DNA of 64,000 nucleotides from assembly GCA_007026445.1 (NCBI GenBank), contig VDMD01000001.1:2046001-2110000 (forward strand), read 5' to 3'. Position 1 is the stretch's first letter. Each line of letters opens with the position of its first letter. The position numbers were made by a program, and so were the translations under genes. The DNA is from Schizophyllum amplum. Lineage: Eukaryota; Basidiomycota; Agaricomycetes; Agaricales; Schizophyllaceae. Shown piece by piece: positions 23,359 through 32,032 of the stretch. Under the pieces are notes generated by a model. It had not been told where the DNA came from, did not search any database, and worked only from the letters and a program-made list of their open reading frames with translations.

Positions 23359-23441
23359 GTCGGTATCGATTAGGGGTTAAATCACCTCGTTGTGGCGGGT
23401 CTCTCCCCGAGGAGCCGCAGGTTCGATTCCTGCTACCGACA
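23359..23441 (+). tRNA. tRNA-His (GTG), with an 11-nt intron
   Basis: The 83-nt gene folds with a 7-bp acceptor (GTCGGTA/TACCGAC), a GATT/AATC D stem, a CCTCG/CGAGG anticodon stem and a GCAGG/CCTGC T stem with the B-box core GGTTCGATTCC. The anticodon loop reads TTGTGG, then 11 extra bases (CGGGTCTCTCC), then C; this places the intron after position 37, the standard site. Anticodon GTG reads His codons. The discriminator base is A. A TTTTT terminator follows directly. A second copy lies at 31950-32032 on the other strand. Confidence 0.9.
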
Positions 23442-25231: not shown

Positions 25232-25240
25232 AGTCCAAAG
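25232..25240. repeat. 9-bp target-site duplication, left copy (AGTCCAAAG)
   Basis: AGTCCAAAG lies directly outside TAGTCT and is repeated in direct orientation at 31890-31898. With neighbouring bases the shared string is AAGTCCAAAGTA (12 bp), so the true duplication could be 9 to 12 bp. Confidence 0.65.
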
Positions 25241-25337
25241 TAGTCTCCCGTAGGCAGCCGTTCCGCAAGGAACGTCTGCTACTTATCAAATGCGGCCGTT
25301 TGGCAGCTCGGCCAATTTCTCATCACATGACTCCCAG

Positions 25338-25354
25338 CGCTTTGACAACCGCTT
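25338..25354 (+). repeat. subterminal 17-bp motif, left copy
   Basis: CGCTTTGACAACCGCTT lies 97 bp inside the left end and matches CGCTTTGACATCCGCTT at 31814-31830 with one mismatch, in the same orientation. Confidence 0.5.
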
Positions 25355-25464
25355 GTACCGCGCGTAATTTATGATCGATCAAGCATGATTTGACGCGTCC
25401 TGCCGCGCATCTTGTCGCTGGCGAGCGTGCTGCCCGTGCAAAAACTCCGTTCTTCGCCGTAACA

Positions 25465-27484
25465 ATGGCTTTTCAGTTTTCTTCGCCCGAGGGTCGATCT
25501 CTCTGCTCCAGAATAATTCAAGATAAAACAGAACAAGAGCCACACGACCATCAGCTCGATGTTATCACGCGCGTCCTCGACCGCAAACACGTCCTGGCCG
25601 TAACCTACACAGGAAGCGGAAAGTCCGGGTACATCTATATGGTCATCATCGTTCTACGTGCCCTTGCTAGTGATCCATCGCTCTGTCCACAATATAAAGG
25701 ACCACAAAACCCTGTTATTACCGTTATCTGTCCCACTAATGCCCTCGAAGATGACCTTGTGAGTACATGTCTGCATGTTGAGCAAACTTCCCCTAATGAC
25801 AGTATAGGAAGCAAAGATGCACCGATACTCGATTCCTACGCTTGTCATCAGCAAGGAGCGGAGGGAGAAGATGAAGAACGAGCAGCACAAGGATATCTTT
25901 CGGGAAGCAAAGAGCACGAGCTATAGCGTCCTGCTCATGACACCCGAGATGCTCGCATCTAACGCATTCGGCCATCTTCTGGAGGACCCTGCGTTTGCGC
26001 GGCGCGAAGCTGCTCTGATGGTGGATGAAGCTCATCTCATGTGGGTATGGGGACCAGGCTTCCGCACGGAGTACACTCAGATCGGCCACATCCATTCGCG
26101 CTTCTCGAAGGGCTGTCCTCTCGTCGCGTTCACGGCTACCCTGCGCTCTGGAACTGCAGAAGTTTCGCCTCGCAATGCTGTTTGTCGCTTCCTCGGACTA
26201 CAAGCGGGCCACTTCCATTTTGTTCATCGGTCAAATGCCAGATATGAGATGAAAATCTCTGTCCGTCCTCTCCACCAGAGCCGCCAAAGCGACCGCTTTC
26301 CAGACCTCGATTGGCTTCTTCATGCGAAGGGGAAAATCTTGGTGTTCTGCTCGAGCATCAAGTGGGGCAGCAAGATCGCGTTCTATCTGCTTGGAAAGCA
26401 GTCGGGTGCAACAATGGCATCTCGGCCGCGCACGTACCATCGCCTCCACACCGACGAGTATAATCGCGAGACTCTGGAGCTCTTGCGCACGTCGTCGTCG
26501 CTCTTGGTCATCGCAACCGATACGCTCTCCGTTGGCATTGACATTCCAGACATCGATCTCGTCATTGTCATTCATCCCACCGATCTCGATGACGCTGTAC
26601 AGAAAGGTGGTCGTGCAGGACGTGACTCAATCGCCGTTCCCTCACCCCACTTGATCATCTACCTCCCCAACAAGACCTATACCGAAGCGAGTGCCATCAT
26701 TGCGGAAGCTGAGGAGAGCCCTCATAAGCGAATCGACACCAGCCTTCCACAGCTAGCCCTCGCAGCGTGCAAGGTAGCAAACATCGATGAACAGTACGAG
26801 AACGATCCAGACGAGCAGCCTTGCTCATGCAGCAGCTGTCGCACACGCCCCCGCCATCCATTCCCCTCGCCATGCACATGCTCTGGCTGTCAGCCCGAAG
26901 TAGTGGACGCTCCTGCATCTTCGGCTCAACCAGCAACAGCGTCCACTCAAAAGATCCCTGCGAAGAAGCGGATCTCCGCCAGCATGCGAGAGATCGGGAG
27001 GAAGGAGCTTGAGGGCCTGCGATGGGATATCGCGCGCGGCATTACAGAAGATGACGATGCACCGCTCATCGCCATTCTATCGCCACAGACGATGGACAGA
27101 TGGCTTGATCTCATGCAGACCAAGCTTGATTCTGAGACCGTCTCTGCGTTGATCTCTGGGGAGCACCTTCGCGAACTGGACAAGCCGCTCGAGGACATAC
27201 ACGAGATTCAGCTCTTGATCGCGGACAACCGGCACCTTCGAGCTGCGTGCACCAAGATCCTGAGCTGTCTCGCGAAGCTTCATGCGATCTTCCATGACAT
27301 TCGCGAGTTGGCACGAGTCAAGAGGAATGCTCAAGCTAGACTGCGTCGGCAGACACAGAAGGCAGCAAAAGAGGCGGAGATTGCACGAGCAGCAACCGCC
27401 CAAGTACAGATGGAGCTTCATGCCATCGAAGAGCAGGCAGGGATAGATAACGTAGAATCTGACGATTGCGAGGAAGATGTATAG
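25465..27484 (+). CDS. RecQ-like DEAH-box ATP-dependent DNA helicase
   Basis: Superfamily 2 helicase of RecQ type, 656 residues in two exons (intron 25759-25807). Visible motifs: Walker A TGSGKS (residues 49-54), DEAH (from 171), FTATLRSG (motif III), IATDTLSVGIDIPDIDLVI (motif V) and QKGGRAGRD (motif VI, from 363). After the core comes a Cys cluster CSCSSC ... CTCSGC (from residue 437), which may bind zinc in place of the classical RecQ zinc domain. The last 150 residues are helical, with a coiled coil rich in Ala/Gln/Glu. No HRDC domain is evident. The start is the ATG at 25465; no better upstream ATG was seen. It converges with the DUF6589-like gene, whose stop lies 25 bp beyond its own. 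Likely role: DNA unwinding or strand processing for the element, by inference. Confidence 0.85.
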
Positions 27485-27509
27485 TCTATTGGTGTACCAG
27501 CGTGTAGAT

Positions 27510-30500
27510 CTAGCAGTCATCGTATTCTATGTCGGAGGTACGGTCCATCTCCGCATCCTCAATCTCCGGGAGCGGGTCACTACTTGGAATGATCTCATCC
27601 TCCAGCTCCTCCCCATCACCGTGAGCCTGCAGATGTAAGTGATCCAGAACTTCAAGCATCTCTTCCTCGAGATCAGTAGAAAGAACAAAGAGATGCCCGT
27701 CAATGACCTGTGCAAATACCATGTCCTCGTCAGGACCCCCTACGTGCTCCTCGCCATCTACATCTGCATCGTCGCCGTCTGCATCGGTATCTCCTTCGCC
27801 ACCGGGAATTGTGACACCATCCTGGCTGTTGGACGGCACAGGGGAGACGTCGGTCGGAGCCGTACTGGGCAGCTTCTGTGCTACGCCTCGCCTCAGCAAG
27901 CTACGACGAAGAAATGAAGCAAGCTTCTTCTTCTCGAGGCTCTGGTAGCCAGCAGAGAAGCGATCGAGGTTGTCATCGACAATGATGCGATGAGGGCGGT
28001 AGGTATGCAGCTGGTGTGTGCGATATACATTCAGCAGTGTACGCATGTCGGCCTGACGCGAGGGATCGCTATGTGCAGCCGAACGCTGCTTCAGACCTAG
28101 CCCCTCAAGCCACTCGCCCTTGAGCTGGGCGACGTGATGAAGATTGCGGGACCAGACATTGCGAATGAAGCTATCTCCGTACTCCACTCCTTTATGGCGC
28201 ACGACAGCATCAAGAAGGCGGTTGAAATATTCCTGGACGAGATCGCCATAGGAGAACGCGCCCGGCTTCCCCGTCAAGTTGACGAGACTGAGGCGCAGGA
28301 TCTCCTCCTTCAGCTCCGGTGATGCCTCCTCCAAGCGCACAATCATCTCGAGAACGTAGTCCGTGTATTTTGAGTGCGAGCCACCGGCGAAATGGAATAG
28401 CTGACACTTCGTCATCTCGTAGACACGCCCAGGATCGCCTTCAGCAGCAGCAAGCATGGACTCGCGGAGCAGAGCGGCTCGACGCATGAACAAACGGCTG
28501 TTTGCAAGGACATGATCACCTGGGAACGCTTCAGCGTCACCGGCCGCTGACTCGCCAGAGGCAGCAGCACCTGTTTCCTGCTGCGATTGCGCTTTCCGGC
28601 TCCGCGATTTCGTCCGCTTGGCACCAGCGTGCTGAGCGGCTTTGCCATGCGTGATTTCGCCGAAATCCTTGCTCGAATCGTCCTGGATGACGGTATCCCA
28701 GGACTCGCCTATGGGCAGAATCGTCTGCTCAATGCCAACTCCAGACATTACGACGTCGTGGAGATTCATCGACATATACGCGCGCGCGAGTTTCCGGGCA
28801 ATGCTGAGCAGCTCGTCGCAGGTCGGAAGCCCACCGTCAGCGTGCTCCATGGCTTCGAAGTACTCGAAAAGGTCGTCCGTCTTGTAGTACAGTCTATGCA
28901 ACGCAGGGTCAGTATCGAATTTAGAACACCACAACAACACGTACCGCCAACAATCGAGCATGCGCGCGTCCAGCGTCAGAAACATCAACTGTGTACCTTG
29001 GCTATAATCGACCTTCTTCAGATCCGCAGGCCGTCGCCTGCCCAGCTTAGCGGCCGAGTGCCCCAACGCCGAGTAGTCGCGCGTTTGAGGTTGCCCGTAA
29101 TGTGTCTCGAAGATGTCGCAAACCTCCGTCCAGTCCTTGTGCCAGCCTTCGAGCAGGGGAAAAAGGATCTCGAAGCTGTCGAACGCATTGCCTTCGAACT
29201 GCAGGAATTCGTGAAGCTCTAGAAGCTTTTCGAACGTCAATCCGTCCCCTCCGATGGGCTGTAGACGCTGCTTGAAGTTCGCCTGCGTTTGTCCACCCTG
29301 CTCCAGCATGTCGATGATGTACTCCTTCAACTCCGTGAGGTATACTTCGTTCTTCGACGACGACGCGAGCGGGTGGACCTGGGTTTTTGTCGCAGGAAGT
29401 GGAAGCTTCGATGCTAGGGAGCGGTAGAGATTGGAGACATATGGAGAGATCGACCTCAGCTGTGGCACGAAGTCCGCAAGCACGCGAAGCCATTGCAGCG
29501 AAAGAATCGTCATGACATGTTTCTGGTCGATGAGCTCGTACAGCTTGCGCACTGTCATCGATTGGCGGCGATTTTCGGCCAGGCTGCGACGGTACGCGTC
29601 CAAGGCGAAGACATCAATGTTCGCGCTTTTCGGCGCCTCGTAAAGCGCGCCCGACGACCCAGTGATCAGCTTGCTTTCGCGTCCGAGGGCCATATCACGT
29701 TGTAGAAGGTAGTTGTGGACGTTATCGAATCGCAGCACGTAAAGGGTCTGCGGATCCTCGCCGAAAAGACGCGTGCGGAGTGCCGCGTCTTCAGAGAGAC
29801 GCTGCATAGCGCGCAGAATGGTCGAATAGCTCGGCATATTCCCGACGCGACTGTGGTAGCGGAAGAGGTCCCACGACGCGAGCGAGCCGAAGTGAAGGAC
29901 ACCTGATGCGAGGGGCAGCAGATTTGCGCGGTTTGACCGCGAGAAGTCGAGGATACTGATAGCATTTGTGGCCACCTAATGATATACATGAGCAACGCAA
30001 AGAAGACGAGATCTGGAGGAAGCTCACATTATCCACGGTTCGATGCTGCCGAACAACATCTTCTCCATCTACCTGACGAGGCTTGCGCGACGCGACTGCC
30101 GACACGAGATAATATAGAAGCGGCTGGTGCTTGAGCAAGACGCCGCGAACGTTGCTGACAGTCGCAGCGCCCAAGTCCGACCACTCGAGAGGCTTTGCGT
30201 CGGACTTCTTGCCTAGTGAGATGTGCAGGCCACTGTCGACTGCGATGGCGGCCTCCGCCTCGCGTACGAGCTTCTGTTCGATGAGCTGGGCCGCCCATGC
30301 TGACAGACCCAACCGAACGTGGCGTAAGCCCGCGAACGACACGTCCGTTGCATAGAGCTTGTCCGGTTCGTAGTTTATCGAGCCGTATGAATGCCGAAAC
30401 CACAAGTCGATGATGCGTGAGGGGAAATAATGATGATCTTGGCCTTGAAGGAAGTTCGTGAGGCAGTGGTTCTGGGTTTGGCTGGCTGACATCGGATTTT

Positions 30501-31683
30501 CGGGGCGGGCAGCGCTGAGGTACAGAAGCTGGCCGTAACTCCACTGCAGTTCGACACGCAGGAACCAGAAGAAGAGATCCAGTTTTTGTTGGATCGTTCG
30601 GTATCCACGGGACGCGCCACGGCCAGTTTCCGCTACACGATCCGCTTCAGCCGCCTCGTTTGTGCTCTCGGACCGTGGACGCTTGTTGGTGCGTCCCAGG
30701 AACGCTTCAGAGAGCGGCTCCTTCATCTTCTCCAGGCGCGCAGCGAGATCCTTGGGCCAGATTGATTTCCCAGGCTGCGTGGTGCCGCCCGCTGTGTGAG
30801 AAGCGCCAAGGACATGTCTCGCAGCCGCGGGTGGCGGCGCTCCGCCGCGTCCGTGTCCGCGCCGGGGGCGCCCCCGCCCTCCTCCACGTCCGCGCGCGAA
30901 TCCACGCTCGGCTTCGCGGTCACTCGCTGTCCCTTCTTCGAGGTGTTGATTTCGCGGCCTTGCCATCGCGTTGTCGGCCGCAAACACGTCTCTCGCGGCG
31001 TACGCGCTGTCTTCGATTCCCTCGGCTACTGGCTGATGGAGCGCCTCGAGGTCGCTCTCGGGTATGGGGGGGTCGCGCGAGGTCGAGTAGGTGTCGTCAT
31101 TTTGGCTTATCGATGGTGTTAGATGGATGGGGGAGTCCAGAAAATCCGTGGGCGCTGTATGCGGGATCTTCAGCAACGACCTGCTTGTATCCGCGTAGAC
31201 GTCGCGAGCAGGGACATGAGTCGCCAGGAGGGAGCGCGATGCGTCAGATCGCGTTGGAGAGGACGGGAATGTAGGGGCACGGGACGTGGAGGGTGCGTTC
31301 GCCGACGGTGCTGGTATGTAGTGAGGGGCGGCAGCGGCATTTCTCTCCTTGAGGCCCGACACCTTTTTCCCCCAGAGCAGCTTGCTTTCCTCGCGTTTCG
31401 AAAGAGGGGGGGCTCGCGGTGGAGCGCTAGCCAATTTTTTTGCCCATGCGTCCTTACTTTCCTGTGTACGTCGGTGGCGGAGGTCTGGGTCCCTGTATGG
31501 GCTTTCGTAGACATCCGAGTCTATTATACTTCGTAACGGCGTAGACACGCTTGGTGCAATCGTACGTGGCGTCGCAGTTTGCGCGGCGGCGCTAGCGGCA
31601 GCCTGAGAGAGCACCAAAGAGTCGTCATAGGCAGGCGCTGTTTCACGTAGAGTTGTAGATTCAAAGCTTTCATTGTGTGCCAT
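27510..31683 (-). CDS. DUF6589-like protein, putative element-encoded recombination or mobility protein
   Basis: About 1356 residues in three exons (introns 29976-30027 and 28894-28944; the second is 51 bp and open). The N-terminal 390 residues are disordered and include an Arg/Gly-rich patch (residues 260-281) of nucleic-acid-binding type. The middle part contains LRFDNVHNYLLQRDMALG and LPLPATKTQVHPLASS. The block GGDGLTFEKLLELHEF ... LEGWHKDWTEVCDIFETHYG and the later CQLFHFAGGSHSKYTDYVLE ... LVNLTGKPGAFSYGDLVQEYF match the pattern I know from DUF6589 proteins of mushrooms. The C-terminus is acidic (EDEIIPSSDPLPEIEDAE). The function of DUF6589 is unknown to me. Position next to the helicase, and within 210 bp of the element end, suggest it is the element's main enzyme; that is inference. 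Confidence 0.75.
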
Positions 31684-31813
31684 GAGTGATTTACTGAGGC
31701 ATGAAAGTCGATAGATGGACGTGGACTCAAAGCAGACAGCGAGAGGACAAGAGAGTTGAACTTAGAGCGCTAATCAGGAAGGTCGCGTGCACCGGTCCGT
31801 CGCGGGCCTTTGA

Positions 31814-31830
31814 CGCTTTGACATCCGCTT
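31814..31830 (+). repeat. subterminal 17-bp motif, right copy, within three CTTTGAC repeats
   Basis: CGCTTTGACATCCGCTT is the partner of 25338-25354. CTTTGAC occurs three times between 31808 and 31834, which suits clustered binding sites for a mobility protein. Confidence 0.5.
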
Positions 31831-31889
31831 TGACCTGATGGCAACAATACCCCTCACCTCAGAAACTGCTGGCGTTTGATTGCAGACTA

Positions 31890-31898
31890 AGTCCAAAG
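31890..31898. repeat. 9-bp target-site duplication, right copy (AGTCCAAAG)
   Basis: Exact direct copy of 25232-25240, directly outside AGACTA. It lies about 50 bp from the 3' end of the tRNA-His gene. Confidence 0.65.
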
Positions 31899-31949: not shown

Positions 31950-32032
31950 TGTCGGTAGCAGGAATCGAACCTGCGGCTCCTCGGGGAGAGATCCGCCACA
32001 ACGAGGTGATTTAACCCCTAATCGATACCGAC
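31950..32032 (-). tRNA. tRNA-His (GTG), second copy, with an 11-nt intron
   Basis: The mature sequence is identical to the copy at 23359-23441. The only difference I see in 83 nt is one base within the intron (CGGATCTCTCC versus CGGGTCTCTCC). It is followed on its own strand by TTTT. The two copies face opposite ways, and flanking sequences show no further similarity, so they are separate genes rather than ends of one duplication. Confidence 0.9.

What the first reader, a model, noticed from the sequence alone, without database searches (positions are those of the whole stretch)
25232..31898. A self-contained RecQ helicase - DUF6589 element with target duplication and short inverted ends
Seen: AGTCCAAAG at 25232-25240 and again at 31890-31898, with TAGTCT just inside the left copy and AGACTA just inside the right. 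Between them lie exactly two genes, convergent, each starting about 200 bp from its end. Chance agreement of a 9-12 bp direct repeat plus 6-bp inverted ends at such symmetric places is small. Known: DUF6589 and RecQ-like genes are both multi-copy in mushroom genomes. Inferred: the pair is one mobile unit with the DUF6589 protein as the mobility enzyme and RecQ as the unwinding partner. I recall no described transposon with this gene pair.
Basis: partly seen in the sequence, partly recalled or inferred. Interest (0 to 1): 0.88.

Follow-up and report, generated by a model that had tools for sequence, protein, structure and literature searches.

The report
RecQ–DUF6589 transposon with one hairpin end
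A jumping gene in a fungal genome carries its own DNA-unwinding enzyme beside a protein of unknown function; it is probably of an already described kind, but only one of its two ends carries a hairpin, and short pieces of that end found alone in the genome suggest an unusual lopsided way of cutting itself out.

Summary
Of 23 copies in this genome whose two junctions I read, 20 have exact 9-bp duplications (3 of them two-gene copies); the other three have 8 of 9, a decayed one, and flanks from two loci. DUF6589 lies beside a RecQ-like helicase at 9 of 10 loci. RecQ helicase plus 9-10-bp duplications is what papers report for AcademH, so this is most likely AcademH with DUF6589 as its transposase; that homology and the catalytic fold were not shown. 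Two features that my paper searches did not turn up: one end carries a hairpin just inside TAGTCT and the other does not (12 of 12 hairpin-less ends of one subfamily face a hairpin end), and 80 of 113 hairpin ends lack an exact second hairpin arm. All 4 such unpaired ends I could read are 26-29-bp inserts followed by a repeat of the 9 bp before them (9/9, 9/9, 8/9, 7/9). They look like excision footprints of a one-sided long staggered cut, comparable to the P element's 17 nt.

The parts
25241..31889 (.). the element, 6,649 bp, TAGTCT...AGACTA
   Evidence: Copies elsewhere in the genome start or end their similarity at these bases
25232..25240 (+). left copy of the 9-bp target site duplication AGTCCAAAG
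31890..31898 (+). right copy of the 9-bp target site duplication
25241..25246 (+). terminal inverted repeat TAGTCT, hairpin (H) end
31884..31889 (-). terminal inverted repeat TAGTCT on the - strand, hairpin-less (N) end
25254..25279 (+). sub-terminal hairpin of the H end (DNA fold -9.6 kcal/mol, z -3.8); none at the N end
25274..25279 (+). GTCTGC, where H-end and N-end sequences of related copies become alike; the 4 solo H ends read elsewhere break 0-5 nt before the matching point
25465..25758 (+). RecQ-like helicase, exon 1 (TGSGKS)
   Evidence: Pfam DEAD E 1.4e-5, 25.3 bits against a cut-off of 26; gene model
25808..27484 (+). RecQ-like helicase, exon 2 (DEAH, QKGGRAGRD)
   Evidence: Pfam Helicase_C 1e-11; PDB best Bloom syndrome protein 7auc, E 1.4e-14
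30028..31683 (-). DUF6589 gene, exon 1 (no Pfam match)
28945..29975 (-). DUF6589 gene, exon 2
27510..28893 (-). DUF6589 gene, exon 3
28071..29573 (-). stretch matched by Pfam PF20231 DUF6589 (E 1.9e-114), the proposed transposase core

Best explanation
A cut-and-paste DNA transposon with both its genes intact, most likely of the AcademH lineage. Shown: the unit, its ends, exact 9-bp target duplications, the two genes, and many relatives in the same genome (33 intact hairpin ends). Inferred: the DUF6589 protein is the transposase and joins the ends to target cuts 9 bp apart; the RecQ-like helicase helps to open DNA at the ends. Further inferred, and less sure (0.35, the novel case): on excision the hairpin-less N end is cut at its tip, while at the hairpin-bearing H end the two strands are cut about 26-33 nt apart, so that donor and excised element each keep one strand of that stretch; the helicase separates the strands, the single strand folds into the hairpin, and repair leaves a 26-29-bp remnant between the two target copies. 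The stated confidence is for the transposon and the roles of the two proteins, not for the staggered cut.
For: Ends exact in other copies. Exact 9-bp duplications in 20 of 23 copies with both junctions read, no other length: C1, C79, C46, 7 of 7 and 9 of 9 further pairs, the C246 composite. Both genes open, pN/pS 0.22 and 0.23 between C1 and C77. RecQ match. DUF6589 and helicase matches adjacent at 9 of 10 loci. H ends 113 against 1 in the reversed control; H ends with an exact second arm 33 against 0. Of the 100 H ends listed, 29 of 32 with the second arm but 1 of 68 without it have an N end facing them within 25 kb. All 4 unpaired, truncated H ends read are 26-29-bp inserts followed by a repeat of the preceding 9 bp, 9, 9, 8 and 7 of 9.
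Against: DUF6589 has no PDB relative by sequence and the single-sequence model is worthless (pLDDT 35.7), so the catalytic role is not shown. The AcademH paper is not held, so homology to Academ was not tested. Only 4 of 80 H ends without an exact second arm were read; some of the 80 may merely be mutated or spaced differently. The 7 of 9 match alone is not significant (null 5.8%; one intact control also reaches 7). No empty site for the window's own copy was found. C77 joins a left flank from another locus to this element, unexplained. C245's duplication is decayed.
Confidence: 0.8

Rival explanations
1. Same transposon, but the 26-29-bp remnants arise after insertion, by breakage or replication slippage at the extruded hairpin, not from a staggered transposase cut.
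For: The breaks lie at the end of the hairpin loop or up to 4 nt into its 3' arm; the 58-bp copy C244:1436199-1436256 also departs from the H end near the hairpin apex while keeping its N end.
Against: In the 4 solo ends the remnant runs straight into the second target copy, so the other breakpoint is at the N tip, which a random deletion would not choose.
Confidence: 0.3
2. The solo ends are primary insertions of tiny aborted fragments, or a separate micro-element family.
For: They carry 9-bp or near 9-bp duplications, and H ends without an exact second arm outnumber those with it, 80 to 33.
Against: They lack the second end that the copies with duplications otherwise have, and their sequences follow the different H-end types.
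Confidence: 0.15
3. KolobokH transposon (RecQ-carrying, fungal).
For: [quoted passage not shown]
Against: Duplications are 9 bp with varied sequence; Kolobok uses TTAA (recalled).
Confidence: 0.04
4. Two neighbouring host genes kept together, with chance repeats around them.
For: pN/pS 0.22-0.23 between the C1 and C77 copies would also fit a host function.
Against: The pair recurs at scattered loci, three of them bounded by the same ends with different exact 9-bp duplications; shorter copies with the same ends exist.
Confidence: 0.02
5. Helitron or other rolling-circle element (hairpin near one end plus a helicase).
For: A hairpin near one end only is Helitron-like (recalled).
Against: Exact 9-bp duplications, inverted ends, RecQ-like rather than Pif1-type helicase, no Rep/HUH match in the four reading frames scanned.
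Confidence: 0.01

Closest known systems
AcademH (Academ superfamily; Kojima 2020, not held; known to me here only through passages of PMC10045372, PMC3627910 and PMC10799480)
   Same: Helicase-carrying DNA transposon, RecQ helicase reported for Academ, 9 or 10-bp target duplications, found as low-copy elements in Basidiomycota.
   Different: Homology of DUF6589 to the Academ transposase not tested. The one-sided hairpin and the 26-29-bp remnants appear in no passage I read; whether the original paper mentions them is unknown.
KolobokH
   Same: RecQ helicase, fungi (passage of PMC9587614).
   Different: Kolobok duplications are TTAA (recalled); here 9 bp.
P element
   Same: Works alike in the proposed step: atypically long staggered excision cut, 17 nt (passages of PMC7776569); the repair pathways named there include the Bloom helicase homologue.
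   Different: P makes 8-bp duplications and 17-nt cuts at both ends; here 9 bp and a remnant from one end only. No P transposase match in Pfam.
Kyakuja-Dileera-Zisupton (KDZ) transposons
   Same: DNA transposons of fungi; one is nested inside the C77 copy.
   Different: Different transposase (PF18758) and 7-8-bp duplications (passages of PMC12730594).

Membership tests
AcademH | RecQ-type / superfamily II helicase encoded by the element | tested here: met
   Bloom syndrome protein 7auc E 1.4e-14; 36 of 48 PDB sequences matched are RecQ-family helicases; Helicase_C
AcademH | 9 or 10-bp target site duplications (passage of PMC10045372) | tested here: met
   20 of 23 copies with exactly 9 bp
AcademH | DDD/E transposase of the Academ superfamily | not testable with these tools
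   No Academ reference sequence held; original paper not held; protein database switched off
AcademH | terminal inverted repeats | tested here: met
   6 bp in C1; about 100 bp identical in C46 and about 120 bp at 95% in C79, apart from the hairpin
DDE transposase (DUF6589) | RNase-H-like fold with a D-D-E triad | tested here: inconclusive
   Candidate acids conserved between clades (RxD, GDxxT/S, DLxQE; the last in 3 of the 4 sequences, the fourth ends before it); model pLDDT 35.7
KolobokH | TTAA target duplications (recalled) | tested here: not met
   9-bp duplications of varied sequence
Helitron | no target duplication; Rep/HUH plus Pif1-type helicase (recalled) | tested here: not met
P element | 8-bp duplications | tested here: not met
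   9 bp here
P element | long staggered cuts at both ends | not testable with these tools
   Remnant from one end only in 4 of 4 solo ends read; the cut itself needs a biochemical test

The most novel reading that the evidence does not exclude
A eukaryotic cut-and-paste transposon whose two ends are processed differently: a clean cut at one end, and at the other a long (about 26-33 nt) staggered cut over a hairpin kept by selection, opened by an element-encoded RecQ helicase, so that excision leaves a half-hairpin footprint between the 9-bp target copies. The dozens of H ends without a second arm would then make the genome a record of past excisions.
Probability: 0.35. Interest if true: 0.78.

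Novelty: new variant of a known kind. Interest (0 to 1): 0.58.

Why it matters
It offers a likely function for DUF6589, a Pfam family of unknown function, as a transposase that travels with a RecQ helicase. It also suggests a job for a helicase inside a DNA transposon, an open question as far as I know: to separate the strands between widely spaced cuts at a hairpin-bearing end. The half-hairpin remnants give a direct test of that idea, from sequence alone and from a simple excision assay, and could be used to count past excisions in fungal genomes.

Tried and rejected
Rejected: tRNA targeting. The window's copy ends 51 bp from a tRNA-Thr gene, but ARAGORN finds none in 13 other loci scanned (the sites of the short copies were not scanned). 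Rejected: Helitron, KolobokH, host gene pair (see rivals). Rejected: reading C90 as one element with two hairpin ends; its outer flanks are reverse complements and show no 9-bp repeat, and each hairpin end has its own N end, so it is two H/N copies in inverted order. Their own duplications were not read and they are left out of the 23.

Led nowhere: relatives in viral contigs and in prokaryote genome contigs (3 and 13 stretches matched a pattern, none confirmed); single-sequence structure model; PADLOC; PDB by sequence for DUF6589; an empty site for the window's own left flank; papers naming DUF6589 (none) or PF20231 (one unrelated); papers with Academ, hairpin, excision and transposase together (none). 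Ends of the divergent pairs C7 and C299 were not found; I could not read far enough. C273, C223 and the second C245 pair were never read.

Slips: one search used a wrong frame; the helicase model was out of frame and was redone; one search held a meaningless second row; one search failed; the C90 hairpin row is a script artefact; one search paired ends before the second N-end pattern was known. The lists of ends were typed over, of which one search lists 100 of 113.
Full report
WHAT IS THERE. The element runs from 25241 (TAGTCT) to 31889 (AGACTA) between two copies of AGTCCAAAG. By my splice models the helicase gene (exons 25465-25758 and 25808-27484, +) encodes 656 aa and the DUF6589 gene (exons 31683-30028, 29975-28945, 28893-27510, -) 1356 aa; the stop codons are 25 bp apart. 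Pfam gives DUF6589 at 1.9e-114 and Helicase_C at 1e-11; the best PDB relative of the helicase is a Bloom syndrome protein, E 1.4e-14, so it is RecQ-like. Taken alone the repeat pattern is only moderately improbable: 6 of 300 shuffles gave something as good in the flanks.

IT IS A TRANSPOSON. The window lies in G000 (49.65 Mb, 309 contigs), probably a mushroom-forming fungus judging by genes and transposons (inference). DNA searches show copies whose similarity starts at 25241 (C77:19656, C246) or stops at 31889 (C246:238330); C277 and one C246 match start one base earlier, C146 and C244 stop one base earlier. Four other copies with both genes were read. C79 (218289-225028) has ends TAGTCT/AGACTA and duplication GAATCACCA. 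In C46 the left flank predicted the duplication TGTGTATCC, which was then found at the right end, 254083; this copy spans 23 kb because the helicase gene is split by an insertion of about 16.5 kb, not identified. C245 (65645-84457) has a decayed duplication, GACCGTCTGG against GACCGTCTT. C77 is 99.4% like the window over 12 kb including the right flank, has an 11-kb KDZ transposon with 8-bp duplication TATGATCG inside, and a left flank from another place; contig C201 holds that place (97%) and runs on without the element exactly where TAGTCT begins in C77. Whether C77 is a real rearrangement or an assembly join is open.

THE PAIR TRAVELS TOGETHER. The 19 DUF6589 matches (a lower bound) fall into 10 loci, counting C245:85932 and C245:97473 as two parts of one gene (my reading of the profile positions). 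At 9 of the 10 a RecQ-like helicase match lies within about 6 kb; C223:893772 has none. C77 is a near-identical copy of C1. Seven are convergent (C1, C77, C79, C46, C273, and two on C245), two divergent (C7, C299). Three helicase matches (C260, C157, C201:345398) have no DUF6589 neighbour. Between the C1 and C77 copies both genes are open and show pN/pS of 0.22 and 0.23 (25 nonsynonymous against 36 synonymous differences in all).

EXACT 9-BP DUPLICATIONS. I searched the genome for the two kinds of end. Pattern H, TAGTCTCCN{0,4}AGGCAG: 113 places against 1 for the reversed pattern. Pattern N1, TAGTCTGN{1,5}CAAACGC: 22 against 7, so several N1 hits may be chance. Pattern N2, TAGTCTN{0,8}TGTCGCGCC: 12 against 1. 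Junctions of 7 H/N1 pairs and 9 H/N2 pairs were read: 16 of 16 have exact duplications, always 9 bp. With C1, C79, C46 and the composite C246 (CGCTGAGGG) that makes 20 exact. The 58-bp copy C244:1436199 has 8 of 9, C245 a decayed one, C77 none: 20 of 23, no copy with another length.

ONE END HAS A HAIRPIN. Just inside TAGTCT one end (H) carries an inverted repeat; the other (N) does not. Folded as single-stranded DNA, 5 of 5 H ends beat all 200 shuffles (z -3.8 to -7.4; two of the five are of the window's own type), 0 of 3 N ends do. The inner stem of the C46 type differs from that of C79 on both sides at 5 of 5 pairs and still pairs; as this is one contrast between two stem types it is modest evidence of selection on structure. 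In C46 and C79 the rest of the two ends are long inverted repeats (about 100 bp identical, and about 120 bp at 95%), so the hairpin is the main difference. The H end is on the helicase side in C1, C46 and C245 and on the DUF6589 side in C79, as an inversion of the body between the long repeats would give (inference). The N2 pattern makes no use of a partner: 12 of 12 N2 ends have an H end facing them within 25 kb and none an N end; for N1 it is 16 of 22, and the only N-N pair lies inside the C246 composite.

HALF-HAIRPIN REMNANTS. Only 33 of the 113 H ends have an exact second arm (GTCTGC at 8-28 bases; control 0); the other 80 are truncated or altered there. Among the 100 H ends listed, 29 of 32 with the second arm but only 1 of 68 without it have an N end facing them within 25 kb (Fisher 1e-20). 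In all the sequence I held there were 4 independent unpaired ends of this sort (C146 carries a near copy of the C244 one and is not counted): C2:166180, 29 bp between GCTGATTAG copies (9/9); C277:779118, 28 bp between GGGAATGTG copies (9/9); C13:111926, 28 bp between ATGCCGAGG and ATGCCCAGG (8/9); C244:1922405, 26 bp between GTCCATGTG and CTCCAGGTG (7/9). By chance the best of 25 offsets reaches 9 of 9 at 0.07%, 8 or more at 0.7% and 7 or more at 5.8% of window positions; among intact H ends, used as controls, one reaches 7 and none more. Compared with related intact ends, all four break between the end of the hairpin loop and GTCTGC, the point where H and N ends become alike.

HOW IT MOST LIKELY WORKS. 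Shown: unit, ends, duplications, gene pair, hairpin asymmetry, remnants followed by target copies. Inferred: DUF6589 is a DDE-type transposase. Acidic positions shared by distant clades are candidates, but the fold is not shown. Inferred, at 0.35: excision cuts the N end at its tip and the H end with the strands cut about 26-33 nt apart. This would leave one strand of the H tip with the donor and one with the element, explains why both remnants and new insertions carry it, gives the hairpin a place (the single-stranded tip) and the RecQ helicase a task (separating the strands between the cuts). The P element is a precedent for long stagger: 17 nt at each end, with the Bloom helicase homologue among its repair factors (passages of PMC7776569; see also passages of PMC10983969).

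WHAT IT IS CALLED. Passages I read say that AcademH makes 9 or 10-bp duplications and is linked with a helicase (PMC10045372), that a RecQ helicase is known in Academ (PMC3627910) and that AcademH occurs as low-copy elements in Basidiomycota (PMC10799480). The AcademH paper itself is not held. KolobokH also carries RecQ in fungi (PMC9587614), but Kolobok's TTAA (recalled) does not fit. I file this as most likely AcademH, with the transposase homology untested, and call it a variant for the hairpin end. No held paper holds the word DUF6589; none holds Academ, hairpin, excision and transposase together.

CHANGES AFTER RE-CHECKING. The C46 repeat length was corrected to about 100 bp, 'autonomous' was replaced by 'two-gene' (C46 and C245 are interrupted), and 'truncated' by 'without an exact second arm' where only the pattern count supports it.

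Noticed in passing
G000:C77:19656-43224 (loci L023-L026): Second copy of the element, 99.4% like the window through its right flank, but with a left flank that belongs to the C201 locus and ends exactly at TAGTCT: a rearrangement with a breakpoint at the transposon end, or an assembly join.
   Followed up: partly
G000:C77:19789-31003: 11-kb KDZ transposon (Pfam PF18758, 337-bp inverted ends, 8-bp duplication TATGATCG) nested between the element's H end and its helicase gene.
   Followed up: yes
G000:C246:235649-238379: Composite of two inverted ~900-bp copies with fold-back hairpin ends, flanked as a whole by CGCTGAGGG.
   Followed up: partly
G000:C112:3133915-3136691 (L058, L059): An N-like end (CTATCAGACTA), then CTAGAGTAC, then an H end whose own far end is followed by CTAGAGTAC: apparently two copies in tandem sharing one target sequence; the pattern of ends recurs 14.7 kb further on.
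   Followed up: no
G000:C7:12501-22000 and C299:797001-806500 (L043, L044): A distant clade (20-25% identity in the DUF6589 frames) with DUF6589 and RecQ-like helicase genes divergent instead of convergent; ends not found.
   Followed up: partly
G000:C244:1436199-1436256 (L062): A 58-bp mini-element made of part of an H end and an N end, duplication 8 of 9.
   Followed up: partly
window 23359-23441 and 31950-32032: Two tRNA-Thr(TGT) genes in opposite orientation (the first is 98.9% like C77's copy of the second); the second lies 51 bp from the element.
   Followed up: partly
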